Assembly: GCF_010093305.1 (NCBI RefSeq)
Contig: NZ_PDWS01000009.1
Location: forward strand, 1-64,000
From: Pseudoxanthomonas sacheonensis
GTDB taxonomy: Bacteria > Pseudomonadota > Gammaproteobacteria > Xanthomonadales > Xanthomonadaceae
Direction of reading: 5' to 3'
DNA: 64,000 bases
The first letter of the stretch is position 1. Each line of letters opens with the position of its first letter. The notes under the pieces were generated by a model. The model was not told where the DNA came from. It was given only the letters and a program-made list of their open reading frames with translations, and made no database searches. The translations under genes were made by a program, and so were the position numbers. Of the stretch, positions 216 to 21,601 are shown one piece after another.

Positions 216-1562
216 TCAGGCGCGTAGCAAATACTGGTTCAGCAGGTTTTCGTAAGCTTCCTGCCGACCGCTGCGCTGCTGCGGCTCGCCGGCCTGCGAA
301 GCCTGCGCGACCAGGTCGGCCAACGTGCGCTGTCCGTCCTCGAACGCCTTGCCTTCGCCGCTGTCGAAGCTGGAATAGCGCTGCTTGCGCCAGCTCTCCC
401 AGGGCGAGGCCGTCAGCAGCGCATGCGCCACTTCCAGGCCGCGTGCGAAGCTGTCCATGCCGCCGATATGGGCGAGGAAAAGATCTTCACGATCGGTCGA
501 TTCGCGCCGCACCTTGGCGTCGAAATTCAGTCCGCCAGGTTGCAGGCCGCCCTGGCGCAACACCACCTGCATGGCGCCTACCGTGTCGTAGAGATCGCTG
601 GGGAACTGATCGGTGTCCCAACCGTTCTGCGCATTGCCGCGGTTGGCGTCGATGCTGCCCAGCATGCCCGCGTCGGAGGCCACCTGCAGATCGTGTTCGA
701 AGGTGTGTCCGGACAGCGTCGCGTGGTTGGCTTCGATATTGAGCTTGAAGTCTTTTTCCAGACCATGCTGGCGCAGGAAACCGACCACCGTGGCGCTGTC
801 GAAGTCGTACTGGTGTTTCATCGGCTCCATCGGCTTGGGCTCGATCAGGAAGTTGCCGGTGAAGCCGATGCTGCGGCCATAGTCGCGCGCCATGGTCAGG
901 AAACGCCCCATGTGCGCCAGCTCGCGTTTCATATCGGTGTTGACCAGGCTGGCATAGCCCTCGCGGCCGCCCCAGAACACATAATTCGCGCCGCCCAGTT
1001 CCACGGTGGCGTCCAGCGCGGTTTTCACCTGTACCGCAGCGCGCGCGACCACATTGAAATCCGGATTGGTCGAAGCGCCATTCATGTAGCGCGGATGGCT
1101 GAACAGGTTCGCCGTTCCCCACAGCAGCTTCATGCCCGTGGCATTCTGGCGTTCCTTGGCGATGGCCACCATATGGCGGACGTTCTTCTCGTACTGGCCG
1201 ACATCGTCGTTGTCAGGGGCCAGGTCGATGTCGTGGAAGCACCAGTACGGCACGCCCAGCTTGGTGAAGAATTCGAACGCCGCATCGGCCTTGGCTTCGG
1301 CCTTCTGCAATGCGCTGCCGGTGCCTGCGTCCCATGGATAAGCGCGGGTGCCGGGACCGAAAGGATCGTGGCCGGCATTGCAGAAGCTGTGCCAGTAGCA
1401 CACCGCGAAACGCAGATGTTCGGCCATGGTCTTGTCGCCGATGCGCTTGTCGGCGTCGTACACCTTGAAAGCCAGCGGGTTATCCGAATCGCGGCCTTCG
1501 AACGGGATGCGTCCGATGCCCGGGAAGAATTCTTTTTCGCCGACGAAATATTGACTGCTCAT
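216..1562 (-). CDS. xylA: Xylose isomerase
   Basis: A 448-residue class II xylose isomerase, the usual length. It interconverts D-xylose and D-xylulose in the cytoplasm with two divalent metals. The catalytic and metal-binding residues are visible: CFHD around residues 108-111, IEPKP (E241, K243), NIEANH (E277, H280), D305, and WDTD (D316, D318). The start [13 protein letters not shown] is the family's typical N-terminus. It lies between xylB (40 bases upstream) and the sugar porter (35 bases downstream). The order is therefore kinase, isomerase, transporter in one likely transcript under the xyl-box at 3120. Confidence 0.97.
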
Positions 1563-1602: not shown

Positions 1603-3096
1603 TCACGCGGCGTAGAGGCGCTGCGCGGCGGCAAGGTGGTCCAGGAAACGGCGGTAAGGCTCGCGGTAGGCGACCACCTGCCCGGCATCGGGCGTGCAGG
1701 TCAACGCCTGGTCGCTGATCGCGTGCGCGCCGACCAGTTCGGGCAGAGGAGTCCTGTCCCCCTGCGCTTGCGTGAGCGACCACAAGGCCTGCAGCGCAGC
1801 GCCGAATGCGGCGCCCTCGGCTTCGCGCGGTACTTCCACGGTCAAGCCGAACACATCGGCGACCATCTGCCGCCAGGCAGCGCTCGCGGAGCCTCCACCG
1901 GTCAGAACGATGCGGTCGAACGACATTCCCGCCGCGAGAAAGGCGTCGTATCCGTATTTCAGCGTGAACGTGGCGCCTTCCATGGCGGCGCGATAGAAAT
2001 GGGCCGGGCTGGCGTTGTGCAGGCTGAGACCGGTCAGCACGCCCTTGCCCAGCGGCAGGTCGGGCGTACGTTCGCCATTCAAGAATGGCAGCATGGTAAG
2101 ACCGTCGGCACCAGCGGGCGTAGCCGCGATATGCGCATCGCCCGCGCGCGTGCTGAAGCCGAACAGCCTGGCGATGGTCTCGGTGGCCACCGTGCAATTC
2201 ATGGTGCAGATCAGCGGCAGCCATCCTCCGGTGGAGGAACAGAACGCCGCCCAGCCGCCGGCCGGATCGATCACCGGCGTATCCGAATACGCGAACAGCG
2301 TGCCCGAGGTCCCCAGGCTCATCGCCAGCCTGCCGGGCACCACGCAACCGGTGCCGATGGCGGCCATCATGTTGTCGCCGCCGCCTACCGCGACCAGCAC
2401 GCCTGGCGACAGGCCCAGTTCTTCGGCACGGTCGGCGCGCAGGGGGAACACGCTGTCGGCGGCAACCAGCGGCGGCAGGCACTCGGTGAGATCGCGTTGC
2501 GGATCGATGGCTTTCAGCATCGCGGGCGACCATTGCCGCGTGCGCACATCCAGCCAACCGGTGCCCGAAGCGTCGCCGTGTTCGCAGAAGGCTTCGCCGG
2601 TAAGCCAGAAATTCAGATAGTCGTGCGGCAGCAGGATCCTGGCCAGGCGACGATAGACCTCGGGCCGGTGTTTGCGCGTCCACGGCAATTTCGAGGCGGT
2701 GTAGCCGGCCAGAATCGGATTGCCGGCGATGGCGATGCTGCGTTCTGCCCCACCCACCGCGTCCATGATTTCGACGCATTCAGCGCTGCTGCTGGTGTCG
2801 CACCATAGCTTGGCGGGGGCCAGGACTTCACCGTCGGCGCCGACGGGCACGAAGCCATGTTGCTGTCCGGAAACCGCAAGCGCCTGGATGTTCCTGCGAA
2901 GGCCCGGATCGATGTTGGCGAAGCATGCGCGTACGGCTTTGACCCACTCGCCGGGATGTTGTTCGCGGCTGCCGTCGTCGCCGCTGATGAGCTCCAGCGG
3001 CGCGCTGGCGGCCGCGACTACGCGCCGCGCTTGGTCGTCGTAGACGACGACTTTCACGCTCTGCGTTCCCGCGTCGATTCCGGCGGTAAAAGTCAC
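1603..3096 (-). CDS. xylB: Xylulokinase
   Basis: An FGGY-family kinase that phosphorylates D-xylulose to xylulose 5-phosphate. The N-terminal phosphate loop is IDAGTQSVKVVVYD, and VAVGGGDNMMAAIGTG and LTGGGSASAAWRQM mark the ATP-binding half. I place the start at the GTG at 3096 (VTFTAGIDAG, 497 residues). The frame stays open to an ATG at 3180, but that start would add about 28 non-family residues and would put the operator-like xyl-box inside the gene. The Shine-Dalgarno is weak (GCAGAG), so the start remains uncertain. It is the first gene of the xylBA-transporter unit. Confidence 0.93.
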   Translation of the reverse strand: MTFTAGIDAGTQSVKVVVYDDQARRVVAAASAPLELISGDDGSREQHPGEWVKAVRACFANIDPGLRRNIQALAVSGQQHGFVPVGADGEVLAPAKLWCDTSSSAECVEIMDAVGGAERSIAIAGNPILAGYTASKLPWTRKHRPEVYRRLARILLPHDYLNFWLTGEAFCEHGDASGTGWLDVRTRQWSPAMLKAIDPQRDLTECLPPLVAADSVFPLRADRAEELGLSPGVLVAVGGGDNMMAAIGTGCVVPGRLAMSLGTSGTLFAYSDTPVIDPAGGWAAFCSSTGGWLPLICTMNCTVATETIARLFGFSTRAGDAHIAATPAGADGLTMLPFLNGERTPDLPLGKGVLTGLSLHNASPAHFYRAAMEGATFTLKYGYDAFLAAGMSFDRIVLTGGGSASAAWRQMVADVFGLTVEVPREAEGAAFGAALQALWSLTQAQGDRTPLPELVGAHAISDQALTCTPDAGQVVAYREPYRRFLDHLAAAQRLYAA

Positions 3097-3119
3097 TGCA
3101 GCAACTCTGCCGGAAAAAA

Positions 3120-3133
3120 AGTTAGCGCTACCA
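3120..3133 (-). promoter_or_regulatory. xyl-box, probable XylR (LacI-family) operator
   Basis: Read on the minus strand this is TGGTAGCGCTAACT, 13 of 14 bases matching the xyl-box TGGTAGCGCTAACA that I recall for XylR in Xanthomonas campestris. It has the central TAGCGCTA palindrome and lies 24 bases before the proposed GTG of xylB. A repressor bound here would block initiation of the xylBA-transporter transcript. An exact copy lies at 11084 before the first TBDR gene. No xylR gene is in the window. Confidence 0.8.
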
Positions 3134-3380
3134 TTCCGGTGGCAAAAAAAAGACCAGCTGCTTGAAAGACTCGATTTCACTTCCCGCCCCGATCTGTGCC
3201 GCTGATGTTTCGCACTTTAACTATCGCTTCAAGAAAAAGCCTGCTGCAACGCAGAATATGTTTTAAATCAATGCGTTACTAGGCAGCAGTACGCGAATCC
3301 TTTCGGGACGCCAGTCGACAGGTTTTCGTTTCGGCGCCTTTTCAGCCTGGGTATGAAGACATCTCTTCCTGCTGGAACCA
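3134..3380. other. Intergenic region upstream of xylB
   Basis: No gene or RNA is visible. The region is less GC-rich than the flanking genes and must hold the xylB promoter, but I could not pick convincing -35/-10 boxes. It also contains the 3' flank of the DUF6445-type gene ending at 3381. Confidence 0.5.
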
Positions 3381-4076
3381 TCAGGGAACCACATCGATGA
3401 AGGTATTGATCGATAGCCGCCCCGTCACCGGATCGGCGGGCGGAACCCGCGCCTTGTCGATGCTGCCGGAGGGCAACGAATTTCGCCGATAAACCACCAT
3501 CCGGTTGAACACGCCTTCCACCTTGGCGACCCGCTCGAACAGCGCCGTGTCTTCACCGATGTAACCGTCCGCGACATCGCTGCCACGGCTCTCCTGTTCC
3601 AGGCAATCGAAGTACTCCTTCCGTCGTTGCTCGTCGATGTACTCGAAACCGGTGCGGCGGTGACGATAGAAGGCCGTTCCGCCCCAGTCTGCGTGGAACA
3701 GGTAATGCACGGTCGCCAGCCCCTCGCTGCGAAGCGAGTCGATGTGCGGTATGCGCTGCAGGAACAACAGCTTTTCCGCAGGCAGGGTCACCAGCGAAAA
3801 GTGGCACATCGGGAACACGAACCGGCCGGGTTCCAAGCCGAAGCATTCCTTCAACAACGGGTTCAGGGTCGTCTCGAGGAAGCGCTGGTACGACAGCGGC
3901 GCCTGGGCGCGGATGCCGGGGAACATCGAGGCTTGCCCGACGAAGTGGCTGCGCGCGGCTTTCCGCACCAGCCGCTCGGGATCGGAAACGAGATTGTCGA
4001 TGACCAGCAGCGGAGCGCCCTCCGTTCCGATCGAAAGCTTGCGGACCTGGAGGCCGGGGTGATGGTTCAGAAGCAT
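3381..4076 (-). CDS. DUF6445-type protein, possible 2OG-Fe(II) oxygenase-like fold
   Basis: 231 residues with no signal peptide. The central part has HIDSLRSEGLATVHYLF followed by WGGTAFYRHRRTGFE. I associate this pattern with the DUF6445 family, which is often found beside tryptophan-halogenase-like genes in Xanthomonas and Caulobacter relatives. The HxD pair followed by a histidine-rich strand recalls iron/2-oxoglutarate oxygenases, but that is inference and no activity is known to me. A GAGGAAT ribosome binding site precedes the ATG. It follows the halogenase gene by 28 bases and ends the SapC/cupin/halogenase cassette. Confidence 0.7.
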   Translation of the reverse strand: MLLNHHPGLQVRKLSIGTEGAPLLVIDNLVSDPERLVRKAARSHFVGQASMFPGIRAQAPLSYQRFLETTLNPLLKECFGLEPGRFVFPMCHFSLVTLPAEKLLFLQRIPHIDSLRSEGLATVHYLFHADWGGTAFYRHRRTGFEYIDEQRRKEYFDCLEQESRGSDVADGYIGEDTALFERVAKVEGVFNRMVVYRRNSLPSGSIDKARVPPADPVTGRLSINTFIDVVP

Positions 4077-4104
4077 GCGTATTCCTCGCTGGCCCCACGC
4101 ATGG

Positions 4105-5628
4105 CTACGCCGGCGTCGATCTCGCCCCCCACACCTCGGGCGCGGCCTTGCAATAGCGCTCTATGAATTCCTGCTGCGACGGCATCTGCGCGACCGTCCG
4201 CTCGATCGGCTGCCGGATCGAATCCAATAGCTTGCGCATGTCCTGATCGGGCAACGCGCGCGCCAGCGGGTGATGCTGCTCCGGCTCGATGCCCTGCCCC
4301 AACAGCACGTGCGTCCACGAGTCCACCCGGAACAGTTCATCCGCGCCCTGCCATGCGTGTGCACGCTCGCGCCACGCGCGCAGGCGCATCGCCAGCGATT
4401 CGGGCAACTCCATCTCGCGGCATTCTTTCCACATCGGCTCGTCGCGCTGGTTGGCGTGGTAGTGCAGGATGATGAAGTCGCGCACATGCTCCATTTCGGC
4501 GCGGCTGACGTCGTTGTAGATATCGACCAGCGAGGGTGCGATTCCATCGAATGGGAACAGCTGGATCAGGCGCACCACGGCGCTGATGGCCAGGTGGATG
4601 CTGGTCGATTCCAGCGGCTCGATGAAGCCGCTGGCCAGGCCCAGCGACACCACGTTCTTGTTCCACGCCTTCAACCTGCGGCCGGTGCGGAACGGTACCA
4701 GCCACGGATCCTTGATGGGCCTGGCGCCGACGTCCTGCAACAGCTTTGCCCGTGCTTCGTCGTCGGACATGTGGCGGCTGGAAAAGACCAGCCCGCAGCC
4801 GACGCGGTGCTGCAGCGGGATATGCCAACGCCAACCGGCTTCGTGGGCGATGGCGCGGGTGTAGGGCACGGGCGGACCGACCGATTCGGTCTGCACCGCC
4901 ACGGCGCGGTCGCTGGGCAGCCACTGGTTCCAGTCCTCATAACCGGTGTGCAGGGCCTGCTCGATCAGCAGGCCGCGGAAGCCGGTGCAGTCGATGAACA
5001 AGTCGCCCTCGACGACCTGCCCGTCTTCCAGCACCAGCGCTTCGACGAAGCCGCTATCCGCATGCTGCCTGACTTCGTGGATCTTGCCCTCCATGCGCTT
5101 CAATCCGTAGCCCTCCGCAATGCGGCGCAGGAAGCGCGCATACAGGCTGGCGTCGAAATGGTAGGCGTAGTTGACCTGCGGCTGTTGCGGCAATGCGAAC
5201 CGGTCGTCGCGCGAAGCGACGGTTTCCAGACAGAAATCGCCCAGTTCCGATTGCATGCCGCGGCGCAGGCTGTCGAGCCAGAAATGATGGAAAGGACAGA
5301 CCAGCGTGCCCTGCCCTGTGGTTCCGAAAGGATGGATGTACCGCTCACCGGGCCGGCGCCAGTTCTCGAACGAGATCGAAAGCTTGAAAGTGCCGGCGAC
5401 GGCGCGCAGGAATTCCTGTTCGTCGATCTGCAGGAAACGGTGGAAAGTGCGGATCGGCGGCACCGTCGATTCGCCGACGCCGACAGTGCCGATCTGTTCG
5501 GACTCGACCAGGGTGATGTCCAGCCTGTCACGGAACTGGTGCGACAGGGCGCAGGCGGCAAGCCAACCCGCGGTGCCGCCGCCGGCGATCACCACCTTGC
5601 GTATTTGCCCTTTATCCGATCTGTCCAA
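4105..5628 (-). CDS. Flavin-dependent tryptophan-halogenase-like protein
   Basis: 507 residues of the PrnA/RebH-like flavin-dependent halogenase family. Visible hallmarks are the FAD loop GGGTAGW (16-22), the catalytic-lysine segment GTFKLSISFENW (Lys82), the halogenase signature WRWHIP (266-271) and FIEPLEST (335-342) with the conserved glutamate. On residues alone it should be catalytically competent. The start appears to be TTG at 5628, with GGGGAGAG close upstream; no ATG precedes the FAD loop. Relatives next to TBDR genes in Xanthomonas have been reported to brominate indoles in vitro, but the natural substrate is unknown. It lies between the cupin and DUF6445-type genes. Confidence 0.88.
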   Translation of the reverse strand: MDRSDKGQIRKVVIAGGGTAGWLAACALSHQFRDRLDITLVESEQIGTVGVGESTVPPIRTFHRFLQIDEQEFLRAVAGTFKLSISFENWRRPGERYIHPFGTTGQGTLVCPFHHFWLDSLRRGMQSELGDFCLETVASRDDRFALPQQPQVNYAYHFDASLYARFLRRIAEGYGLKRMEGKIHEVRQHADSGFVEALVLEDGQVVEGDLFIDCTGFRGLLIEQALHTGYEDWNQWLPSDRAVAVQTESVGPPVPYTRAIAHEAGWRWHIPLQHRVGCGLVFSSRHMSDDEARAKLLQDVGARPIKDPWLVPFRTGRRLKAWNKNVVSLGLASGFIEPLESTSIHLAISAVVRLIQLFPFDGIAPSLVDIYNDVSRAEMEHVRDFIILHYHANQRDEPMWKECREMELPESLAMRLRAWRERAHAWQGADELFRVDSWTHVLLGQGIEPEQHHPLARALPDQDMRKLLDSIRQPIERTVAQMPSQQEFIERYCKAAPEVWGARSTPA

Positions 5629-5676
5629 TTCACTCTCCCCTTTTGCAACGGATGCGGCACGAGGACCGTTCGCACC

Positions 5677-6708
5677 TCAGCGATTCAGCTTTCCAATCAG
5701 CATGGCGCGGATCCGCCGCGCGAGCGTTTCGTCCACGGGCCCCAGCACGTTGCGCGCCGCATCCGGCAAATGTTCGCCCGCCCGCTCGGCCGGCCCGAAG
5801 ACGTAGTACTCGAACACGTCCCGCCAGGCCTGCTTTTCCCTTTCCGGCCGGTCGCGGATCGTCCACAGCGCGTGGTAAAGCGCATGCATCGGCGTGGGCA
5901 CGTAAGCGGGCGAACTGCTCCACCAGTAATTGACCAGCACGTTGAACGCGTCCAGCGCCTGCACATGGTGCCACCACATGCTGGGGATGAAGATGGCGTC
6001 GCCCGGCTCCAGCAACGCGCTTTGACCGCGTGCCAGCGCGTCGCGGAAGTGCGGATAACGTTCGAAGTCGGGAGCGGCGAAATCGACCACGCTCACCGCC
6101 TGCCCGCCGGGCGTCGGCTCCAGCGGACCAGGATAGAGATTGGCGATCTGCTCCGGCGGAAACAACGTGAACCGCCGCCGCCCGACCGTGCAGCAGGCGA
6201 TGTTATTGGGCGCGTCGTAATGGCACGAGGCGGTAACGCGATTACCGACCCAGATACTGGGCGGAGCCTGCACACCATGCGCGGCGAAGTCGAGATCGTT
6301 CCCGGCCCGGAAGCCCGGCAGACAACCCTCGATCGGCAGCGACGCCACGTAGTAGGTGGGCGGATGCGCGTCGTCCGCATGCGCGGCGATTTCATCCAGC
6401 ACCCGATCGAGCCCGCCGCGCCGTACTTCGCAATTCAAGCCGGTGAAATCGTCGTTGTAGAACGGACGCCCGGCCACTTCCGGTCCGCCATAGGAATACT
6501 GTACCGGCGCGCCGTTGTAGTAGCCGCGCAAATAAGCCATCGCCGCCTGCATGGATTCCAGTCCGGCCCGCACCAGTCCCCAGTCGCGCGCGATGCCTTT
6601 CAGCAACGCCGGCTGTCCCACTGCCAACAACTCGTCCAGCGGCAGCGCGTCGGGCCGGCAGCCTTCGATCACGCGGATATCGCCGGCCACCTCGACCATG
6701 CCGTTCAC
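5677..6708 (-). CDS. Cupin-8/JmjC-domain protein
   Basis: 343 residues of the cupin_8 (JmjC-like) group, whose members are often iron- and 2-oxoglutarate-dependent hydroxylases. The iron ligands are visible as HYDAPNN (HxD) and a distal histidine in MWWHHV, with CCTVGRRRFTLFPPEQ between them. No signal peptide is seen, so it is probably cytoplasmic. The GTG at 6708 overlaps the sapC stop as GTGA, suggesting translational coupling. An in-frame ATG at 6699 is an alternative start. The halogenase-like gene follows 48 bases later. The substrate is unknown; hydroxylation of a protein or small molecule is inference from the fold. Confidence 0.82.
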   Translation of the reverse strand: MNGMVEVAGDIRVIEGCRPDALPLDELLAVGQPALLKGIARDWGLVRAGLESMQAAMAYLRGYYNGAPVQYSYGGPEVAGRPFYNDDFTGLNCEVRRGGLDRVLDEIAAHADDAHPPTYYVASLPIEGCLPGFRAGNDLDFAAHGVQAPPSIWVGNRVTASCHYDAPNNIACCTVGRRRFTLFPPEQIANLYPGPLEPTPGGQAVSVVDFAAPDFERYPHFRDALARGQSALLEPGDAIFIPSMWWHHVQALDAFNVLVNYWWSSSPAYVPTPMHALYHALWTIRDRPEREKQAWRDVFEYYVFGPAERAGEHLPDAARNVLGPVDETLARRIRAMLIGKLNR

Positions 6709-7463
6709 GCCGCGCGTTCGGGCGCCGCAGCGTCGCGCTCGCGCAAGCGGCGCTGTTTTTCGGCCATCAACCGGCGCACGTTGTGCAGCGAAGCCAACAC
6801 CAGGTAGGCGCCTTCGAGGAAGCCGGCCTGGTTCAGGCGGTGCAGCGATCCGGCGTCGAGCGCGGCCAGTCTCTCGCGATCGATGCCGTACAGGCCGCTC
6901 ACGCTGACGCGGTGCTTGTCCTCCAGTTGAACCTCCAGATTGACCGGCTGGATGAGGCTCATGGAATCGAACGCGGCGAACATGGCCGCACCGAACTCCA
7001 CACCGTCGCGAATGCCGCGCAGCACGCCGGCGATGTGTTGCAGGTAAGGACTGTTGCCGCCTTGCGGCAGGAACACCGGTTCGCCTTCGCTGAAACTGAC
7101 GCGCGGATGCTCCAGATCGACATGCATGACCGGCTCGTTACGCAATTCGCCGTCGATGCGCTGCTCCTGGAAGCCGATCAGGAACGGCCCCTTGGCGATG
7201 GCGCCCGGCAGGTAGGCGGCATTCCAGCGGCCGTCCTGCAGGAACAGATTCTCATGCTGTTCGAACCCCAGCAGCGCCACCGATTGCCATTGGCCGCTGT
7301 CGCCGTCCTTGCGGAAGAAGATCGGATACTCCCTTTGCAACTCGGCGTACTCGCTAGGGAACGCCGGCACCATGCCGATGTCGTCGCCGAATTGGCGGCC
7401 GAAGCCGGTGACCACGCGCAGGTCCTTGTGGGTCACGTTGTCGAGCAGTTCGTATCGGGCCAT
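6705..7463 (-). CDS. SapC-family protein
   Basis: 252 residues resembling the SapC family, named after a Campylobacter surface-layer gene region. The N-terminal half carries FPSEYAELQREYPIFFRKD and a GFQEQRI segment. I chose the ATG at 7463 (MARYELLDNVTHKDLRVV) because the frame upstream is non-family sequence crossing the terminator. It heads the cassette SapC, cupin, halogenase, DUF6445, and overlaps the cupin start by four bases. In related bacteria this family recurs beside sugar TBDRs, but its role is not established. It is separated from the receptor by a strong hairpin, so expression may depend on read-through or a second promoter. Confidence 0.85.
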   Translation of the reverse strand: MARYELLDNVTHKDLRVVTGFGRQFGDDIGMVPAFPSEYAELQREYPIFFRKDGDSGQWQSVALLGFEQHENLFLQDGRWNAAYLPGAIAKGPFLIGFQEQRIDGELRNEPVMHVDLEHPRVSFSEGEPVFLPQGGNSPYLQHIAGVLRGIRDGVEFGAAMFAAFDSMSLIQPVNLEVQLEDKHRVSVSGLYGIDRERLAALDAGSLHRLNQAGFLEGAYLVLASLHNVRRLMAEKQRRLRERDAAAPERAA

Positions 7464-7560: not shown

Positions 7561-7593
7561 AATAAAAGGGACCGCTGCTTGCGCAGCGGTCCC
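7561..7593 (-). terminator. Rho-independent terminator after the first TBDR gene
   Basis: A perfect 11-bp stem, GGGACCGCTGC (7568-7578) with GCAGCGGTCCC (7583-7593), has a four-base loop. On the minus strand it is followed by TTTTATT. On the plus strand it is followed by GCTTTT, so it could work in both directions. It lies 38 bases after the receptor stop and about 100 bases before sapC. It probably makes receptor mRNA more abundant than the downstream cassette. Confidence 0.9.
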
Positions 7594-7630: not shown

Positions 7631-10600
7631 TCAGAACTTGTAGCGCACCCCGAGCATGTAGCGCGGGCTCTGATCGGCCAGTTTGACGATCTGCTTGTCG
7701 GTGCGGGCGTGCCAGCGCACGTCCTCGCCGGTCAGGTTGATCGCCTCCAGGCCGAACGACCAATGGTCGTCGAGCGCGTAGTTCACGCTCAGGTCCCACT
7801 GCTCGTAGGCTTCCACGTAGTACGGATTGCGGCTGCCGCCCTGGTTGGCCAGGATCAGGTACTCGTCGCGCCAGTTCCAGGCCAGTCGCACCGACCAGCC
7901 ATACTTTTCATACATGAACATGGCGTTGGCGGTATCGCTGAGGCCCGTCAGGGCGAACTGGTCGATGCCCGGATCACCCGCATCGTCATAGCCCACATCG
8001 CCCTTGACGACAGTGTAGTTGGCCAGAACGCCGAAGCCGCTGTCACCAAAGAAGTACTGGCCACCCAACTCCCAACCGTGCAACTTGGACTGGTTCTGAT
8101 TGACCGGCCGGTTGACGTTGAACATGTACAACGGATCGTCGGCTTCGCCGACCAGGTTGTACGCGGTTTCCGTCGCCAGTTGCTGCGCGCCGGTACCGTT
8201 GAAGGCCGCCAACCCGGCGGGATCGTTGCGCAATAGCGCCAGCGCGGTGAACAACGAAGTGTCGTTGGCCGAACAGGCCGCGGCGTTGGCGGCGCCCACC
8301 TGGGTCACACATGCCGCACTGGTAAGGAAAGCCAGGGCGGCCTGCGCATCCGGACCCGAAGTCGGATCCCGCAGCCCGTAAAGCGACTCTTGGCCGACGG
8401 TATTACCGATGAAGTTGTCGACCGACTTGTTCCAGTAGGTCAGCGACAGGTAACTTGCATCCGCGAAATACCACTCCAGCGCCAAGTCCAGGTTGTCCGA
8501 TTCCAAGGGCATCAGGCCTGGGTTCTGAGCGTTCCCGCTGGCGCGAGCTGCGGAGTCGAGCAGGACCGAGCCAGACGGTTGTTGTGCGCCAGGACCGGCA
8601 TACAGGTTGCCGTAGGGTGCACGCGCGATGGTTCTGCCGAACGAGGCGCGGCCCTTCAGCTCATCGGTGAAATCGATGCTGAAATCCAGATTGGGCAGGA
8701 TATAACTGTAGCTGTTCTTCTCGCTGTACGGCTGCTGCTCATCGGACAGCACGATCCTGAAATCGTTGTTCGCCGACCATTCGATTGCTTCCGGTATGGC
8801 GATCACCGAAGTCGAGACCAGGTCCGTCTTCTCGTAACGAATGCCGATGCGGGTGTTGGTGCGCATCCCGCCCAGCTCGCCCTCCAGCTGTATCTGCATG
8901 TAGGCGGAGTTGGTCTTTTCTTCGACACGGTTGTCAGCCGCGTTCTGCGGACTCACGCCGATGCTGGCACCGTAATGGTCGGCGGCCCATTGCGCCAACT
9001 CGCCAGCATCGCCCCGCCACGCGCCATTGCTGCTGCCGACGTTGTAATCGTTGAACAGACCCGCGATGTCGTACGGCTTGATCAGATCCATCAGGCCGTT
9101 GGCGACGTCGCTATCCACGTTGGCAACGCCCCAGTCGCCCAGGGTCGAATAGTTTTCCGCAGCCTGCAGCCGGTGGGTCGAAGACTTGGAGCTGTCGACG
9201 CCGAACTGGAAACGGCCGCTGTCGAAAGTCCATTCGCCGTCGATACGGCCCTGCTTGATTTCGCTGACCTGGGTCTGTGCGTTGATTCGCAGCACCTGCG
9301 AGCCGATTTCGCCCTCGACGAAGCCAGGGTTCACGACACCGTTGGTACCGGCCAGCGCGTCTGCGGTGCTCGGATACCAGGTCTGCGAGCCCCGTGGCAG
9401 TCCGCTGTTGAAGAACAGCTCCTGTACCCACGACCCGCCGCAGTGCGGGCCGGTGGTGCAATTGTTGGTGCCCGCGATACTCGAGAAGATCGAGCCGCCG
9501 CCGGTCAACGGGTCGTTCGGCCGGCTCTCGTTCTTGGAGTTGTGCGCGTCGAAACTCAGGCGGAAGTCGTCGCTGACATCCCAAACCGCATTGAAGCCCA
9601 GCGAGCTCAGCTTGTATTTCTGCATGCTGCGTTGCTGTTCCAGGCCGAAGTCCTTGGTGCCGGCGATTTCGCGGATGTAGACCGGGGTGGCCACTGCGCC
9701 GCTGGTATCGAACTCGACGTCGGTGTACTGGCTGTTCTGCAGCCACATGCTTTGCTCGCCACGATTCTCGGTGATTTCGTTGGTCGAGTAGGTGTAGTCC
9801 AGGGTCAGGGTCAGGCTGTCGATCGGCGCGAACTGCACCACCGCCTGTCCGTTGACCCGCTCGCGCTCGAACTCGGAGAAGGCATAGCGCAAGTCGTTGG
9901 GACGGGCGTAGAGCTCACCGATGGCGGGCGCGTTCACTACGTTCGGGTTGCCGGGCATGGTCCCGGTCCACTGCTGTATGTTCCAGTAGTTCTCGGTCGC
10001 CTGCACCGAGCCGCCCTTGCGCTTCTGCGAACTCGCGCTGACGCCTATGCCGAAGGTCTTGTCGGCATTGGTGAAGCTGAAGATACCGGACACCTCCGGG
10101 GTGATGTCGTTCCCGAACGGCTGCGACCGGTCGGAGACCGCCTTGACGCCGGCACTGGCGACAATGCCCTCATGGTTGAAGGGCTTGTCGGTCAGGATGT
10201 TGATGGTCGCGCCGATGCCGCCGCTCGGAACCTGCGCCTGACCGGTCTTGTAGACCTCGATGCCGCTGATCGCCTCGGCCGCAAGCTGGGCGAAGTTGAA
10301 CGCGCGGGTACCGCCGTCCACGCCGCCGATCGCCACCTGGCCGGCCGCACCAAAGGCGTCTGCGCCGGGCATCTGGCGGCCATTGAGGGTGACCATGTTG
10401 AACTGCGGACCGAAACCGCGCGCGGTGACCTGCGCGCCTTCGCCATCGCGGCGCTCGATCGAGATGCCGGTGATGCGCTGCAAAGATTCGGCCAGGTTGG
10501 TGTCCGGGAACTTGCCGATGTCCTCGGCGCTGATCGCATCGACCACGCCGGCGGAGTCGCGCTTGATTCCCATCGCCTGGTTGAGGCTGCTGCGGATGCC

Positions 10601-10756
10601 CGTCACCACGACGGTATCGAGCGTCGTGGCGTCGTCGGTCGCCTGCTGCGTGCCCTGTGCGGGTGCGTCCTGCGCAAAAGCAGGATTGATGATCAGCATA
10701 CCGCCAACGAAGGTGAACATGGCCTTCGACTTGAACCGCTTCGACTTGTGACTCAT
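7631..10756 (-). CDS. TonB-dependent receptor, probable xylan/xylo-oligosaccharide uptake
   Basis: 1041 residues. A signal peptide ending near ...NPAFAQ is followed by a TonB box-like stretch TTLDTVVVTG. The plug domain (about 60-230) contains ISIERRDGEGAQVTARGFGP. A 22-strand barrel ends in RYMLGVRYKF with the terminal phenylalanine needed for outer-membrane insertion. It belongs to the Xanthomonas/Caulobacter carbohydrate TBDR group. A GAGGAAAT ribosome binding site supports the ATG at 10756. The substrate is inferred from the exact xyl-box at 11084 and the nearby xylBA genes; no xylanase gene is in the window. The four-gene SapC cassette lies downstream of a terminator. Confidence 0.93.
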   Translation of the reverse strand: MSHKSKRFKSKAMFTFVGGMLIINPAFAQDAPAQGTQQATDDATTLDTVVVTGIRSSLNQAMGIKRDSAGVVDAISAEDIGKFPDTNLAESLQRITGISIERRDGEGAQVTARGFGPQFNMVTLNGRQMPGADAFGAAGQVAIGGVDGGTRAFNFAQLAAEAISGIEVYKTGQAQVPSGGIGATINILTDKPFNHEGIVASAGVKAVSDRSQPFGNDITPEVSGIFSFTNADKTFGIGVSASSQKRKGGSVQATENYWNIQQWTGTMPGNPNVVNAPAIGELYARPNDLRYAFSEFERERVNGQAVVQFAPIDSLTLTLDYTYSTNEITENRGEQSMWLQNSQYTDVEFDTSGAVATPVYIREIAGTKDFGLEQQRSMQKYKLSSLGFNAVWDVSDDFRLSFDAHNSKNESRPNDPLTGGGSIFSSIAGTNNCTTGPHCGGSWVQELFFNSGLPRGSQTWYPSTADALAGTNGVVNPGFVEGEIGSQVLRINAQTQVSEIKQGRIDGEWTFDSGRFQFGVDSSKSSTHRLQAAENYSTLGDWGVANVDSDVANGLMDLIKPYDIAGLFNDYNVGSSNGAWRGDAGELAQWAADHYGASIGVSPQNAADNRVEEKTNSAYMQIQLEGELGGMRTNTRIGIRYEKTDLVSTSVIAIPEAIEWSANNDFRIVLSDEQQPYSEKNSYSYILPNLDFSIDFTDELKGRASFGRTIARAPYGNLYAGPGAQQPSGSVLLDSAARASGNAQNPGLMPLESDNLDLALEWYFADASYLSLTYWNKSVDNFIGNTVGQESLYGLRDPTSGPDAQAALAFLTSAACVTQVGAANAAACSANDTSLFTALALLRNDPAGLAAFNGTGAQQLATETAYNLVGEADDPLYMFNVNRPVNQNQSKLHGWELGGQYFFGDSGFGVLANYTVVKGDVGYDDAGDPGIDQFALTGLSDTANAMFMYEKYGWSVRLAWNWRDEYLILANQGGSRNPYYVEAYEQWDLSVNYALDDHWSFGLEAINLTGEDVRWHARTDKQIVKLADQSPRYMLGVRYKF

Positions 10757-11083: not shown

Positions 11084-11097
11084 TGGTAGCGCTAACA
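11084..11097. promoter_or_regulatory. xyl-box, exact copy, upstream of the first TBDR gene
   Basis: The plus strand reads TGGTAGCGCTAACA, identical to the Xanthomonas xyl-box as I know it. It lies 328 bases before the TBDR start, so a long leader or an upstream promoter is implied. Together with the copy before xylB it ties the receptor and xylose genes into one predicted XylR regulon. Confidence 0.85.
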
Positions 11098-11322: not shown

Positions 11323-12747
11323 TCAATCGTTCCAGGTGCGCCTTAAAGGATGGGCCTCGGTGTTGAACACCATGCCGTCGAAATCCAGCGCCTTGCCCGG
11401 AGCGAACAGCAAGTAGTAGTACTTGAAGGTTTCCGCGAACAGGAAGCTCTCCATCGAATCTTCCTTTTCCTTGCTGCGCACGTCCTTCAGAGCGGCGAAA
11501 CCGTGCCCGGTACGGGTATGGCGGACGAAATCCCGGAAGAACTCCTTGCCCATGCCACGATAACGCGCGTCGCCGGTGTAGCGGTACAGGTAATAGGCCG
11601 ATTCCACTATCTCCGGGCGCAACGGATAGCCGGGCGAACGCACCTGCATATCCGCATAATCGATCGATTCCGGTTCGATGCCGTGCAGGCGCCACATCTT
11701 CAGACCGGACTCCTGCAGGCGTTTGGCGCGGTCCAGGTCGCCGCCCAACGCCAGCAGTGCCGGCATGAACGCATCCAACGCACCGTAGACCGTCTGCGTG
11801 CGGGCGCCGGTGTTCATGTCGGCATAGCCGTACCAGAGTTCGCCACCGCGCACTTCATCGGACAGGTAGCGATTGATCGGGCCGATGCTTTCGTCCCACA
11901 TGCGTTTGCAGTCGTCGTCGCCGAAGAGTTTCCAGCATTTGTAGAGGTATTCGTAGTACGAATCGATGCCGCCGGCGATGTGGCTGGTAGGATTGGTCCA
12001 CTCACCGGTTTGCACGTCGATGCTCAGACCAACCAGCCCGATCTTCGAGCGGCGGTTGAAGGTTTCCACCAGAGCACGCTTGGCCTTGTCGTAGTAGACC
12101 GGATCGCCGGTGAGCTTGCTCAGCGTACCGAATTCCAGCAGCAGCGTACCGGTTTCCGCAGGATTGCTGATGGTTCCCCGCACTTTGCCGGTACGCAGGT
12201 TGACGTGGGTATAAGGCAAGCCGGTCCGGGTATCGAATACCGGCAACAGGCGCTTTCCGAGGTCTTCGGCAAGACTCAGCAGGCGCTTGTCGCCGGTCAA
12301 TTGATATCCGGAAATCAGGCCGCCCAGTAGGCGGATGGTGATTTCGAAGTTCTGTACGTACATGTCGCGATCGAACGACAGCTGGCCGACGATCAGTTCG
12401 CGGGCTTCACCGGCTTCCTTGTCCAGTCCCAGCAGCACCAGGGTATCCAGCGCGTCGACAGGCGACATCAACAGGGAGTGCTGGTACCAGTCGCGTGGCG
12501 CGGCGCTGAGCGGCTTCAGATCGTCGTGGCCTTTCGCGAAACGCATGTAGCCCTGCCAGGCGTGGCGCGCCTCGGCGCGCACTTGCTCGGCCAACCGCGC
12601 GGACTCCCGGGCCTCGACGGCCGGCACGGCTTCGACGACATGCTTCGGCACGCCGTCGCTATCCGGCGTTTGCGCACCTGCCGTCCAAGCCAACAACGAC
12701 AACAATACGATGCCGGCCACTGCCCTGCCCTGCTTTCCCTGGAACAT
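11323..12747 (-). CDS. Exported GH47 family alpha-1,2-mannosidase
   Basis: 474 residues. A signal peptide (LLSLLAWTAGAQ) is followed by a GH47 (alpha/alpha)7-barrel. Family landmarks are LRPEIVES (about residue 376), MESFLFAETFKYYYLLF and the terminal VFNTEAHPL, which supplies the calcium-binding threonine. GH47 enzymes are inverting, calcium-dependent and cut Man-alpha-1,2-Man in high-mannose N-glycans; they are common in eukaryotes and less common in bacteria. I start at the ATG at 12747, which has AAGGAAG at good spacing, rather than the ATG at 12765, which lacks a site. It follows the mannose isomerase by 117 bases and probably acts in the periplasm or at the surface. Confidence 0.9.
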   Translation of the reverse strand: MFQGKQGRAVAGIVLLSLLAWTAGAQTPDSDGVPKHVVEAVPAVEARESARLAEQVRAEARHAWQGYMRFAKGHDDLKPLSAAPRDWYQHSLLMSPVDALDTLVLLGLDKEAGEARELIVGQLSFDRDMYVQNFEITIRLLGGLISGYQLTGDKRLLSLAEDLGKRLLPVFDTRTGLPYTHVNLRTGKVRGTISNPAETGTLLLEFGTLSKLTGDPVYYDKAKRALVETFNRRSKIGLVGLSIDVQTGEWTNPTSHIAGGIDSYYEYLYKCWKLFGDDDCKRMWDESIGPINRYLSDEVRGGELWYGYADMNTGARTQTVYGALDAFMPALLALGGDLDRAKRLQESGLKMWRLHGIEPESIDYADMQVRSPGYPLRPEIVESAYYLYRYTGDARYRGMGKEFFRDFVRHTRTGHGFAALKDVRSKEKEDSMESFLFAETFKYYYLLFAPGKALDFDGMVFNTEAHPLRRTWND

Positions 12748-12864
12748 CGGATTCTTCCTTGTCATCTATGGAATACGGTCATGGCTTGCCGGCCGCAATG
12801 GCGCCGGCCAGCGAATGTCGCGCCATTGCGCAGCGCCAAGACCCGTCACGGGCCTGGGCAGGCC

Positions 12865-14076
12865 CTAGTTGCGGTCGCCGTGCCTCACCACGTTCAACAC
12901 TTCGTGGCAGGCGCCCATGGTGTGGTAGTCGGTCTTGCCGGCCGGGCTCTTTTCGTCGCTGTATTTGCGGTTGTCCGCATCCAGGATGCGGTACCACGCG
13001 CCGTACCGGTGGTCGACGAAATGCTTCCAGGCGTAATCCCACAACCGGTCGTACCAGCGCCAGTACGTCTCGTCGCCGGTGCGTGCGGCCAGCAATGCCG
13101 CCGCCGCCAGCGATTCGGCCTGCACCCAGAAGTACTTGTCGTCGTCGCAGACGCTGCCATCCGGCGCGAAGCCGTAATAAAGGCCGCCTCGCGCCTCGTC
13201 CCAGGATCGCGAGACTGCGGTGTCGAACAGATGGCGCGCGGTAGGTACCAGCCAATCCGCGTCCACGTGCCGGTCCAGGATCAGCAGCAGTTTGGTCCAT
13301 TCGGTCTGGTGGCCGGGCTGGAAACCCCAGGGGCGGAACAGATGCTTGGGATCGTCCAGGTTGTAGTTCCAGTCGATGTTCCACTGCGTGTCGTAGTGCT
13401 CCCACACCAGACCGTCGGCCTTGGCCGCCTGGCGCCGGGTCATGTGGTCGGCCAGGGTCAATGCGCGATCCAGGTAGCGACGCTCGCCGCTGGCCTCGAA
13501 AGCCGCCAGCATCGCTTCGCACATGTGCATATTGGCATTCTGTCCGCGGTAATCGCTGAAGTTCCAGTTCGCATCGGCCTCGTCCTTGTACAGGCCGAAC
13601 TCGGCGTCCCAGAAATACCGTTCCAGCAGCGCCCAGGTTTCGTCCATCCAGCCGCGCGCCTCTTCGAGGCCGGCTTTCAGGCCGCAGGAATAGGCCAGCA
13701 ACACGAAGGCCACGCCGTAGCAATGGTTCATGTCGTCTTCGACCCGGCCATCGCGCAGGGTCCAGGCATAACCGCCCGTCGCCGGATTGCGATGGACCTC
13801 GCGCAGATAGCGCAGCCCATGCTTCACGGCATCCAGATACGCGGCATCGCCGAACTCGCGGTAGGCCATCGCATAGTTGAAGACGAAACGCGTGCTGCTG
13901 ACCAGATGGCGGTGCGTAGCGTCGTAGACCGAGCCGTCGTCGCGGAAGTAATGGAAGAACCCGCCCGCCGGATCGATGGCCCGCGGGTGGTAGAACGCCA
14001 TGGTCTTGGCGATGTGCGCGCGCAGGAATTCCGCAGAGCGGAAATCGGGCGGCGTGGCGTCAGATGGAGTGCTCAT
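12865..14076 (-). CDS. D-mannose isomerase (AGE superfamily)
   Basis: 403 residues of the N-acylglucosamine 2-epimerase superfamily, mannose isomerase branch. It would convert D-mannose to D-fructose in the cytoplasm. Visible landmarks are RPWGFQPGHQTEW (catalytic His256 region) and the C-terminal DYHTMGACHEVL carrying the second catalytic histidine. There is no signal peptide. The start has CAGGGA upstream and overlaps the fructokinase stop by 17 bases, so the two are co-translated. This gives a route mannose to fructose to fructose 6-phosphate that bypasses mannose 6-phosphate isomerase. Epimerisation of GlcNAc is less likely given the context. Confidence 0.87.
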   Translation of the reverse strand: MSTPSDATPPDFRSAEFLRAHIAKTMAFYHPRAIDPAGGFFHYFRDDGSVYDATHRHLVSSTRFVFNYAMAYREFGDAAYLDAVKHGLRYLREVHRNPATGGYAWTLRDGRVEDDMNHCYGVAFVLLAYSCGLKAGLEEARGWMDETWALLERYFWDAEFGLYKDEADANWNFSDYRGQNANMHMCEAMLAAFEASGERRYLDRALTLADHMTRRQAAKADGLVWEHYDTQWNIDWNYNLDDPKHLFRPWGFQPGHQTEWTKLLLILDRHVDADWLVPTARHLFDTAVSRSWDEARGGLYYGFAPDGSVCDDDKYFWVQAESLAAAALLAARTGDETYWRWYDRLWDYAWKHFVDHRYGAWYRILDADNRKYSDEKSPAGKTDYHTMGACHEVLNVVRHGDRN

Positions 14077-15064
14077 ATTTTCCCTGCAAGAGATGGTTGA
14101 CTTCTGCTAGCGACGGCATGGCGGCGAAAGCGCCTTTCCGGGTCACCGCCAGCGCGCCTACTGCGGCGGCGAAGCGGATGGCGTCTTCGATGGCTTCCTG
14201 GCGCAGGCAGAATTCCGCGAAGCCGTGCCCATCGCCTCCCGCTTCGCCCATGCGGAACAGCAATCCGCCGACGAAGGCGTCGCCGGCAGCGGTGCTGTCG
14301 CGTACTTCCACGCGGAAACTTTCCACCTGCCCCGAGGCATGGCGGGTGAACCAGCGGATCGCCGCGGCGCCGTCGGTCACGATGATCCATCGCGCCTCGC
14401 CTCCGAACAGGCGCTTGAGCACCGCCGATTCGCCGGTGGCGCCGCCGCCGAATGGATGCGCCAGGTATTCCAGTTCCTCACGCGCCAGTTTGATCAGATC
14501 GGCGTTGGCGAGCGCCTCCCACAGGCGCGGCGCCGGATCGATGCCTGCGGGCCACAGCGCTGGCCGCAGGTTCAGATCCAGGCTGACCACCGCGCCTGCC
14601 GCACGCGCGCGCAGCATGCCGTTGAACGTGGTTTCGGCGATGGTCGCTTCGGTCAGGCTGTTGGAACAGACATGGAAAGCGCCCGTGCCGGCAAAGCAGC
14701 TGGCCTGGAAATGCTCGGTACGGAACAGCAGATCCGCGGCGGGCGGACGATAGAAGCTGAAACTGCGCTCGCCCGTCGCATCCAGCGCGACGAAAGCCAG
14801 CGCGGTCTTGGCCTCGCCGGTGCGCACTACGCAATCGGTGGCGACGCCGGCCGAGGCCAGGCTTTGCAACAGGAAATCGCCGAACATGTCTTCGCCCAGC
14901 ATGCCCGCGAAATGCGCATCCGCGCCCAAGCGCGCCGTCGCGACGGCCACGTTGGCCGGCGCGCCGCCGGCGTATTGCAGGAAGGCGCGCGGCGTATCGG
15001 CCGTTGTCGGCGGTTGCGCCAGCAGATCGATCAGGGCCTCGCCAAAACAAACGATCTTCGACAT
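14060..15064 (-). CDS. PfkB-family carbohydrate kinase, probable fructokinase
   Basis: 334 residues, ribokinase/PfkB fold. The N-terminal signature is FGEALIDLLAQPP and GGAPANVAVATARLG; the C-terminal signature is DSTAAGDAFVGGLL with the catalytic aspartate. Fructokinase is the best call because it overlaps the mannose isomerase, whose product is fructose; a 2-keto-3-deoxygluconate kinase is the main alternative. I start at the ATG at 15064 (MSKIVCFGEAL), since residues upstream are not family-like. Eight bases separate it from a remnant of a sugar permease gene, so transport and phosphorylation were probably once in one operon. Confidence 0.87.
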   Translation of the reverse strand: MSKIVCFGEALIDLLAQPPTTADTPRAFLQYAGGAPANVAVATARLGADAHFAGMLGEDMFGDFLLQSLASAGVATDCVVRTGEAKTALAFVALDATGERSFSFYRPPAADLLFRTEHFQASCFAGTGAFHVCSNSLTEATIAETTFNGMLRARAAGAVVSLDLNLRPALWPAGIDPAPRLWEALANADLIKLAREELEYLAHPFGGGATGESAVLKRLFGGEARWIIVTDGAAAIRWFTRHASGQVESFRVEVRDSTAAGDAFVGGLLFRMGEAGGDGHGFAEFCLRQEAIEDAIRFAAAVGALAVTRKGAFAAMPSLAEVNHLLQGKYEHSI

Positions 15065-15072
15065 CGCCGGCC

Positions 15073-15291
15073 TCACGCTTCCTTCGCCAGGGCGACGGAA
15101 GCCGGGCGCATGGCGCGCTCGCAATTCGATTCGAATGCCGCCTTCAGATGCGGGATCAGGATGCCGTTGAGGCAGGCCATGAATCTCTTCGTGAAGAAGA
15201 TCGTGGCGACCGCCGGAAGCGCCATGCGCGTATCGATCGCAAGGGCCGGCGTACCGGCCTCGCGCGGAAGGAGGGTATGGGAAACATGCAT
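15073..15291 (-). pseudogene. Remnant of an FHS-family (FucP/GluP-type) sugar permease
   Basis: A 72-codon frame. Residues 30-52 (FFTKRFMACLNGILIPHLKA and following) strongly resemble the first helix and loop of the fucose/glucose/galactose permease family, whose members read FFxWGFxTxLNDILIPHLKxxF. After about residue 60 the match ends and the frame stops (ALAKEA). The remaining 350 or so residues of a normal permease are missing, and the tryptophan and glycine of the helix are altered. This looks like an internal deletion that removed most of the gene. The position between the LacI regulator and the fructokinase suits a mannose/fructose permease. The identification is from memory of the motif. 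Confidence 0.7.
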
Positions 15292-15339
15292 GCGTTTACG
15301 CGCCTCGTAATGCGGCAGGAACGGACGAAGAAAATGGCA

Positions 15340-16416: not shown

Positions 16417-16431
16417 TTGGATCGAACTATT
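16416..16431. promoter_or_regulatory. Operator-like site at the lacI start codon
   Basis: TTTGGATCGAACTATT matches the locus consensus TTTAGATCGATCTAAA at 12 of 16 positions, with the central CG typical of LacI operators. It touches the ATG and overlaps the space between AGGGAA and the start. Binding would block its own expression (autoregulation). Symmetry is weaker than at the other sites. Confidence 0.5.
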
Positions 16432-16538
16432 CCCTATGGAGACGCCAGCCTAAACCATCGCGTTGCGGAAAAATGCCATGCCGGCCGCCTGTCGGCGGGA
16501 GAGAGGACCAACTCGGCGGCAGGCACGGCGCAACCGGA

Positions 16539-19010: not shown

Positions 19011-19063
19011 CAAGACAGACCTCGGAACTGGGATTGACGGAACACGGAATGCCATGCGCCTCG

Positions 19064-21286: not shown

Positions 21287-21395
21287 AACAGGCCTCGAAG
21301 CGTGTTGCGGCAGCTGGAACAACCGGCCGGCAAAGAGAGCCGGCCTTGGTCTGGCAAGCGGGACCATCGAATCGCTCGAACGATCGGATGAACCG

Positions 21396-21413
21396 ATATA
21401 GATCGATCTAAAT
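21396..21413. promoter_or_regulatory. Palindromic operator upstream of the GH20 gene
   Basis: ATATAGATCGATCTAAAT has symmetrical GATCGATC at the centre and eight of nine matched pairs. It lies 110 bases before the GH20 ATG and resembles the sites at 26236 and 28822. It is probably bound by the LacI protein encoded at 15340-16416. Confidence 0.65.
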
Positions 21414-21601
21414 TCAATACCGCTTCATGCTGGTTCGCAATTCCGCAATGGAAAAAGACAGAAGAAATACTGGATAACATTTATAAATCAATGATTTGGC
21501 ATCGCGCGAACGCCCATGCAGGCAACGCAGAAAACGGACTTCGGTCGCATACTGCGCAATCTCCGCAGCTGCCGGCAGGCGATCGAGCGGGCAGGCCATG
21601 A

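What the first reader, a model, noticed from the sequence alone, without database searches (positions are those of the whole stretch)
3381..7463. TBDR-linked SapC / cupin-8 / halogenase / DUF6445 cassette of unknown purpose
Seen: four tightly packed genes behind a sugar receptor. They encode an apparently intact flavin halogenase (Lys82, WRWHIP, EPLEST), a JmjC protein with an HxD...H iron site, a possible second oxygenase and SapC. Known: similar cassettes recur beside TBDRs in Xanthomonas and Caulobacter relatives, yet no pathway has been shown. Inference: together they could oxidise or halogenate one shared target, perhaps an aromatic side chain of the receptor or a surface protein, when the carbohydrate is present. 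This is the best candidate for an undescribed system in the window.
Basis: partly seen in the sequence, partly recalled or inferred. Interest (0 to 1): 0.8.

Follow-up and report, generated by a model that had tools for sequence, protein, structure and literature searches.

The report
Sugar-receptor-bound oxidation and halogenation gene cassette
Four genes, for three oxidising or halogenating enzymes and a helper protein, recur beside one type of sugar-uptake receptor in many bacteria; what they modify is unknown, but the tight bond suggests the receptor itself or another surface protein.

Summary
In detail: behind a TIGR01782 TonB-dependent receptor (TBDR) lie SapC, a FIH-like Cupin_8 oxygenase, a flavin halogenase and DUF6445 on one strand. 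The module is real: in a tree of 112 TBDRs the 23 with SapC+Cupin_8+halogenase fall in one clade of 24; searching 299 genomes with the receptor, 25 of 30 close hits carry the full cassette, 1 part, 4 none locally. More distant versions sit beside other TBDRs on five plasmids. Cassette paralogues mostly follow their receptors; sugars and operators vary. Halogenase and Cupin_8 keep catalytic residues. DUF6445 is predicted as a 2OG-Fe(II) oxygenase, but the window copy lacks the third iron ligand (H202P, 1 of 94). SapC has a confident model without a PDB match; in 12 of 50 other loci it lies near giant ORFs. I favour receptor or surface-protein tailoring (0.45). Against the aromatic-residue idea, four sister receptors without a local cassette keep the clade's tryptophans. 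Here the receptor shares a xylose-type operator with xylB.

The parts
3381..4076 (-). DUF6445 (PF20043): 2OG-Fe(II) oxygenase fold; H111 and D113 present, H202 replaced by Pro in this copy
4105..5628 (-). Flavin-dependent halogenase (PF04820), Xcc4156/BrvH subgroup; K82, W266-P271 motif, E337; start codon TTG uncertain
5677..6708 (-). Cupin_8 / JmjC-like 2OG oxygenase, nearest solved relatives FIH and JMJD5; Fe site H163, D165, H247; overlaps SapC by 4 nt
6705..7463 (-). SapC (PF07277), confident AlphaFold model without PDB fold match; family-wide residues H12, E38, N72, P86, D116, F131
7568..7593 (-). Terminator-like hairpin (11 pairs, then TTTTATT) between TBDR and SapC
   Evidence: 8 terminator-like sites in the region, 7.3 in shuffles; this is the longest stem
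7631..10756 (-). TonB-dependent receptor TIGR01782, member of the cassette-linked clade
11084..11097 (+). Palindromic LacI-type operator-like site TGGTAGCGCTAACA upstream of the TBDR
3120..3133 (-). Same site with one mismatch (TGGTAGCGCTAACT), near the start of xylB
1603..3180 (-). xylB xylulokinase (true start probably inside this ORF); neighbour, not part of the module
216..1562 (-). xylA xylose isomerase; neighbour, not part of the module
11323..12765 (-). GH47 alpha-mannosidase family; neighbour of the next sugar cluster

Best explanation
A TBDR-dedicated oxidative tailoring module. Shown: one TBDR clade and the same-strand cassette SapC / Cupin_8 / halogenase (with DUF6445 in some) are inherited largely as a unit while neighbouring sugar genes and operators differ, and the halogenase and Cupin_8 keep their catalytic residues under purifying selection. 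Inferred: the proteins, which show no export signal, act in the cytoplasm on the receptor precursor before it is exported, or on another surface protein made with it. SapC, whose relatives in some other bacteria lie near giant surface proteins, would recognise or hold the client; the FIH-like Cupin_8 would hydroxylate a side chain (Asn, Asp or His most likely; N664 of the receptor is the best lead), the open-pocket halogenase would brominate or chlorinate an aromatic residue, and DUF6445, where intact, would hydroxylate a further residue (Pro or Lys by fold). In this genome DUF6445 is probably impaired and the set would be induced with xylose genes. Purpose (guess): tuning ligand binding, or protecting an exposed receptor against phages, bacteriocins or proteases.
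For: The 23 full cassettes of the first set fall in one TBDR clade of 24 among 112 TBDRs; with more sequences a clade of 86 holds 83 linked, 2 partly linked, 1 locally unlinked (most were picked because they are linked). Reverse search: 25 of 30 TBDRs of 900 bits or more in 299 genomes have the full cassette beside them, 1 part, 4 none (places held; the model was built from linked TBDRs and two candidates per genome were scored). 55 of 66 halogenases of 153 bits or more in 12 cassette-bearing genomes lie within 6 kb of a listed TIGR01782 TBDR, 3.5 expected. DUF6445 as bait: 62 of the 80 loci nearest to the window (of 476 relatives) have TBDR, SapC, Cupin_8 and halogenase within 6.5 kb. Cupin_8 as bait in plasmids: at the best place of 10 of 10 records SapC is adjacent. 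Distances correlate: TBDR-halogenase r 0.86, TBDR-SapC 0.75, TBDR-Cupin_8 0.66, 0 of 1000 permutations as high, and cassette paralogues mostly follow the TBDR paralogue. The enzymes belong to groups with known protein or peptide substrates: FIH/JMJD5, OGFOD1/Tpa1/PHD2/LH3 by fold, and BrvH/Xcc4156, for which the authors suggest a peptide substrate (PMC5945002, PMC7336383, passages seen). SapC without halogenase or Cupin_8: ORF of 1500 aa or more in 12 of 50 loci, against 2 of 31 loci with them (both odd, L088 and L119) and 0 of 18 halogenase loci without SapC; annotated cases.
Against: Covariation does not name a target: sisters without a local cassette keep W660, W542, D209, E221, N302, H405. 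One-clade linkage is not exclusive: on five plasmids SapC, Cupin_8 and halogenase, in more distant versions and divergent layout, lie beside TBDRs outside the clade (L289, L290, L291, L292; L313, its TBDR not placed in a tree), and Cupin_8 with halogenase but without SapC beside others (L121, L122, L129, L132). Distance correlations also reflect species history. No enzyme of the module has been shown to act on a protein. 38 of 50 lone SapC loci show no ORF of 1500 aa, and in family f38 lone SapC lies beside FAD-linked oxidases. TBDR-clade linkage would also follow if the enzymes acted on that clade's ligand.
Confidence: 0.45

Rival explanations
1. The enzymes act on a small molecule that this TBDR clade imports with or attached to its oligosaccharide, or on an indole-like signal made in response; hydroxylation and halogenation detoxify or convert it.
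For: The cassette-linked TBDR clade has its own invariant pocket-like residues, so it may have its own ligand; MFS transporters and GH3/GH1/GH67 enzymes are among the frequent neighbours; BrvH and the Xcc enzymes brominate free indoles (PMC5945002, PMC7336383, passages).
Against: In 102 ORFs from 17 of 23 cassette loci no enzyme family is constant (best 9 members, MFS); operators vary; the authors report low indole activity of BrvH and no free-Trp activity; SapC has no small-molecule role known to me; sisters without a local cassette keep the same pocket residues.
Confidence: 0.25
2. The module modifies or escorts a different exported protein, or helps TBDR assembly without lasting modification; the receptor is only its marker.
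For: SapC relatives near autotransporter, LEPR-XLL and DUF4214 proteins; halogenases also pair with other TBDR clades and one in this genome lies beside a TBDR with a carboxypeptidase-regulatory-like N-terminus (by eye).
Against: In one search a TBDR is present in 22 of 22 loci with Cupin_8; I saw no second surface protein that is constant, though I did not search for one systematically.
Confidence: 0.15
3. A sensing device: O2- and flavin-dependent enzymes report redox or oxygen state and gate sugar uptake, as FIH and PHD2 do for HIF.
For: Cupin_8 is nearest to FIH and DUF6445 folds like PHD2/OGFOD1.
Against: No regulator belongs to the module; similarity of fold is not evidence of sensing.
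Confidence: 0.1
4. Neutral hitch-hiking of unrelated genes behind a mobile sugar locus.
For: The genes sit between a xylose and a mannose-type cluster; relatives are on plasmids.
Against: Same order in Alpha- and Gammaproteobacteria, rearranged versions that stay together, correlated distances, dN/dS 0.035-0.125 for halogenase, SapC and Cupin_8.
Confidence: 0.03

Closest known systems
BrvH and Xcc4156 brominating flavin halogenases (PDB 6FRL, 6Y1W)
   Same: Same subgroup: the window halogenase scores 560 bits with 6Y1W, 544 with 9LUQ, 461 with 6FRL; catalytic Lys, Glu and WxWxIP motif present
   Different: The word TonB does not occur in either text, so the cassette is not discussed as TBDR-linked there; activity of the window enzyme is untested
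CUT loci (carbohydrate utilisation loci containing TBDRs) of Xanthomonas and Caulobacter, notably the xylose-induced XCC2828 / CC0999 pair
   Same: TBDR with carbohydrate enzymes; operator-like palindrome; in this genome two TBDRs have the site upstream (C44 and C33), as two xylose-induced TBDRs are reported in Xcc (PMC1790865, passages)
   Different: The CUT definition in the passages names no oxygenase, halogenase or SapC; I could not check that XCC2826-2827 are these genes
FIH / JMJD5 protein hydroxylases (JmjC, Cupin_8)
   Same: Sequence match E about 1e-20 to FIH, HxD...H site intact
   Different: The FIH match covers only residues 158-268; Arg where FIH has its 2OG-binding Lys (recalled); substrate unknown
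OGFOD1 / Tpa1 / PHD2 / LH3 prolyl and lysyl hydroxylases
   Different: 9-16% identity; window copy lacks the distal His
RiPP tailoring clusters with halogenase or cupin-like hydroxylase (MibH, named in PMC7336383; PbsQ, PMC12257519, passages)
   Same: Oxidative tailoring of ribosomal peptides by the same enzyme classes
   Different: No precursor peptide noticed (no dedicated search); gaps between the cassette genes are mostly short
SapC of the Campylobacter fetus S-layer locus (recalled)
   Same: Pfam family PF07277 is named SapC
   Different: Partner here is a TBDR, not an S-layer protein

Membership tests
Flavin-dependent indole/tryptophan halogenase | PF04820 above cut-off, FAD motif, catalytic Lys, WxWxIP, active-site Glu | tested here: met
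   656 bits, cut-off 21; K82, W266-P271, E337
Flavin-dependent indole/tryptophan halogenase | Halogenation with FADH2, O2 and halide | not testable with these tools
   needs enzyme assay
Cupin_8 / JmjC 2OG-Fe(II) oxygenase | HxD...H iron triad | tested here: met
   H163, D165, H247 in 99 of 99
FIH-type protein hydroxylase | hydroxylates a protein side chain | not testable with these tools
   sequence similarity only
2OG-Fe(II) oxygenase (DUF6445) | double-stranded beta-helix fold | tested here: met
2OG-Fe(II) oxygenase (DUF6445) | complete iron triad in the window copy | tested here: not met
   H111 and D113 present, position 202 is Pro; 93 of 94 have His
SapC (PF07277) | Pfam model above cut-off | tested here: met
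   220 bits, cut-off 28.9
SapC (PF07277) | relation to a known fold | tested here: inconclusive
SapC (PF07277) | role in surface-protein secretion | not testable with these tools
   neighbourhood only
CUT locus | TBDR next to carbohydrate-degrading enzymes | tested here: met
   TIGR01782, GH47, xylA, xylB
CUT locus | sugar-specific regulation | tested here: inconclusive
   operator-like sites; no expression data
RiPP cluster | precursor peptide gene | not tested
   no dedicated search
Anti-phage defence system | match to PADLOC models | tested here: not met
   0 hits for 4 proteins at E 0.01

The most novel reading that the evidence does not exclude
A dedicated protein-modification pathway for outer-membrane transporters: SapC presents the nascent receptor (or a co-made surface protein) to a FIH-like hydroxylase, a brominating halogenase and, where intact, a prolyl/lysyl-hydroxylase-like enzyme. 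It would be the first halogenation or hydroxylation of a nutrient receptor that I know of, give BrvH/Xcc4156-type halogenases a native protein substrate, and make SapC a new client-recognition fold for surface proteins.
Probability: 0.33. Interest if true: 0.92.

Novelty: new variant of a known kind. Interest (0 to 1): 0.68.

Why it matters
The native substrate of BrvH- and Xcc-type halogenases is stated as unknown in PMC7336383 (passage); this work ties relatives of that subgroup to one TBDR clade and to two other oxygenases and SapC, so the question becomes a mass-spectrometry test on a named protein. It also gives SapC, found in 104 of 299 Pseudomonadota genomes sampled and without a sequence match in the PDB, a confident model and a testable role with exported surface proteins. 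If the receptor is modified, uptake of plant sugars would be tuned by protein halogenation or hydroxylation; I found no paper describing that in ten searches of an open-access library, where most subscription papers are missing.

Tried and rejected
Aromatic target by covariation: W660 looked striking (79 of 79 linked against 2% of 63 unlinked) but is kept in sisters without a local cassette, so I do not count it as evidence; a cassette elsewhere in G126 and G234 could act in trans, so it is not excluded either. Presence or absence of DUF6445 within the clade (62 against 17) gave top differences G729, S730, A804, Q379 that look clade-like; one Pro (P929, 85% against 35%) is far down the list. 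A xylan-only role: dropped because operators and neighbours vary. Defence: no PADLOC hit. Viral contigs: 8 pattern matches, no relative of DUF6445 confirmed. SapC against viral models: none at E 0.001. Pfam counts around lone SapC (107 ORFs, loci up to L113 only because of the size limit) were mixed: OEP 6, ShlB 2, RTX 2, but also FAD oxidase 7, N-formylglutamate amidohydrolase 5, response regulator 5. The genome-wide operator scan has a high background: 8 matches at 6 places against 3 for the reversed pattern, and two places lie by OmpA- and LysR-type genes. Papers: the three listed were not opened; one hit for SapC was a clay name. A list of neighbours of named loci made was not scanned. Rows dropped: 16 halogenase rows under 153 bits and the TBDR rows under 391 bits; 10-base dud locus L050. 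Long antisense ORFs in GC-rich loci inflate; each of its 12 loci also has at least one ORF with 10% or less Lys+Arg.
Full report
What is there. On the minus strand behind a TIGR01782 TBDR (10756-7631) lie SapC (7463-6705), a Cupin_8 protein (6708-5677, overlapping SapC by 4 nt), a flavin halogenase (5628-4105) and DUF6445 (4076-3381); xylB and xylA follow. The window is part of contig C44 of a 4.04-Mb genome; the nearest named locus is Pseudoxanthomonas sp. CF125 (DUF6445 96% identical). The genome has one SapC, two full-length halogenases and one strong DUF6445.

Conservation. SapC occurs in 104 of 299 Pseudomonadota genomes. I fetched 20-kb stretches around part of the SapC hits and called the five families with profiles started from the window proteins: of 80 loci with SapC (window included) 30 have a halogenase and 22 a Cupin_8 of this type, and the 22 all have a TBDR. 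The order TBDR-(halogenase)-SapC-Cupin_8-halogenase-(DUF6445) recurs in these and in named Alpha- and Gammaproteobacteria. In 12 genomes chosen because they carry cassettes, 55 of 66 halogenases lie within 6 kb of a listed TIGR01782 receptor, with 3.5 expected from genome size and receptor number, and 40 of 115 receptors have one. With DUF6445 as bait, 62 of the 80 loci nearest to the window have all four partners within 6.5 kb, 74 a halogenase, 3 nothing. With Cupin_8 as bait in plasmids, SapC is adjacent at the best place of 10 of 10 records.

The cassette follows a receptor clade, not exclusively. In a tree of 112 TBDRs the 23 full-cassette receptors sit in one clade of 24 (support 0.64; 0.99 with the next sister), the 24th having a halogenase only. 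With 79 linked receptors and added loci the clade has 86 members and support 0.98: 83 linked, L127 and L295 partly, L297 not. Searching 299 genomes with a receptor model gave 30 hits of 900 bits or more; comparing places have the full cassette, G122 has SapC and two halogenases, four have none in a 20-kb stretch. Against exclusiveness: on five sphingomonad plasmids SapC, Cupin_8 and halogenase, in more distant versions and with at least one gene on the other strand, lie beside TBDRs outside the clade (L289, L290, L291, L292; L313, whose TBDR I did not put in a tree; L292 falls just outside). Distances between families correlate in 23 loci (TBDR-halogenase 0.86, TBDR-SapC 0.75, TBDR-Cupin_8 0.66; 0 of 1000 permutations as high), and in genomes with two cassettes each component is mostly closest to the matching cassette of another genome, most cleanly in G284, G031 and G283, less so in G276 and G186. 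Species history contributes to these correlations.

The sugar is not the constant. In 102 ORFs from 17 of the 23 cassette loci the most frequent families are MFS transporters (9), GH3 (6), LacI regulators (5), GH1 (4) and GH67 (2). In the window a palindrome TGGTAGCGCTAACA lies at 11084-11097 upstream of the TBDR and, with one change, at 3120-3133 near the start of xylB (0.2 expected). In the genome the degenerate pattern has exact sites at six places (8 matches, 3 for the reversed control): among them one upstream of a second, cassette-free TBDR, one beside an alpha-galactosidase gene near it, and one between a lactonase-like gene and a sugar transporter gene; two others lie by OmpA- and LysR-type genes. 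Upstream of linked TBDRs the pattern with up to one mismatch occurs in 37 of 79, in 0 of 79 shuffled and 6 of 61 unlinked receptors; some others carry different LacI-type palindromes. Xcc XCC2828 and Caulobacter CC0999 are reported as conserved, xylose-induced TBDRs (PMC1790865, passages seen); whether their neighbours are these genes I could not check. PMC4046712 lists XCC2826/XCC2828 as 'Xylan degradation I' (one table passage).

SapC elsewhere. In plasmid records SapC follows a 16-kb autotransporter gene (Agrobacterium), a 38.7-kb LEPR-XLL gene with HlyD and a site-2 protease between (Pseudosulfitobacter) and a DUF4214 gene (Sulfitobacter); two other cases, in Pseudomonas and Rhodospirillum, show no such gene directly upstream. 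Of 50 SapC loci without halogenase or Cupin_8, 12 have an ORF of 1500 aa or more, against 2 of 31 with them and 0 of 18 halogenase loci without SapC.

Residues invariant in linked receptors and rare elsewhere include W660, D209, N302, E221, H405, W338 and D941. If the halogenase needed W660 as target and nothing else kept it, receptors without the cassette should lose it; the sisters L298-L301 keep it. Caveat: G126 and G234, the genomes of L299 and L301, have a cassette elsewhere. Only 14 positions are at least 92% conserved in linked receptors and absent from all four sisters; none is Trp, one is Tyr (Y914), two are Phe, four are Asn. N664 (94%; G, S, T, S in sisters) is the most interesting because it lies four residues after W660, in what I take by recalled TBDR topology to be an extracellular loop.

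Verdict. A real, widely shared module inherited mainly with one receptor clade, with no function found in the literature I could search. I put 0.45 on tailoring of the receptor or a co-made surface protein, 0.25 on a small-molecule role, 0.15 on a different exported client or assembly aid, 0.1 on sensing. The enzyme families are known and CUT loci are known, so I file the locus as a new variant of a known kind; the modification pathway itself, if shown, would be new.

Noticed in passing
window 3381-4076 (codon 202 of DUF6445): The third iron ligand His of the DUF6445 family is Pro here (1 of 94); CF125 keeps His. Loss or sequencing error.
   Followed up: yes
window 11323-26207: Next cluster looks like an N-glycan/mannose utilisation locus: GH47 and an AGE-family mannose-isomerase-like enzyme, then by eye a PfkB sugar kinase, LacI regulator, GH92-, GH20- and GH29-like enzymes and a second TBDR (names recalled, not tested).
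   Followed up: partly
L122 12769-14205, L125 10386-11846, L128 9467-10837, L129 3994-5481, L138 11240-12718: Tandem halogenase clusters, most of them behind TBDRs, in which one copy has lost the catalytic Lys, suggesting pseudo-enzyme partners.
   Followed up: partly
L088 13921-16740 and L119 3465-5846: Halogenase-like proteins with Arg for the catalytic Lys near SapC, in loci that also hold an ORF of 2000 aa or more, an odd third context.
   Followed up: no
L281 6657-6917, L285 7791-8009: A small DUF6447 protein sits beside SapC in Pseudomonas and Sulfitobacter plasmids.
   Followed up: no
L006 10303-14966 (G000 C22): The second halogenase of this genome lies beside a TBDR with a carboxypeptidase-regulatory-like N-terminus, with LacI, GH3 and sugar ABC transporter genes nearby (names by eye).
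   Followed up: no
L289, L290, L291, L313: Novosphingobium and Sphingomonas plasmids carry SapC-Cupin_8 divergent from TBDR-halogenase, still adjacent; the three TBDRs tested (L289-L291) lie outside the main clade.
   Followed up: partly
L091, L094, L100, L102, L104, L106, L107: In genomes of family f38 (unnamed) a lone SapC is next to what looks like a FAD-linked oxidase (D-lactate-dehydrogenase type); reason unknown.
   Followed up: no
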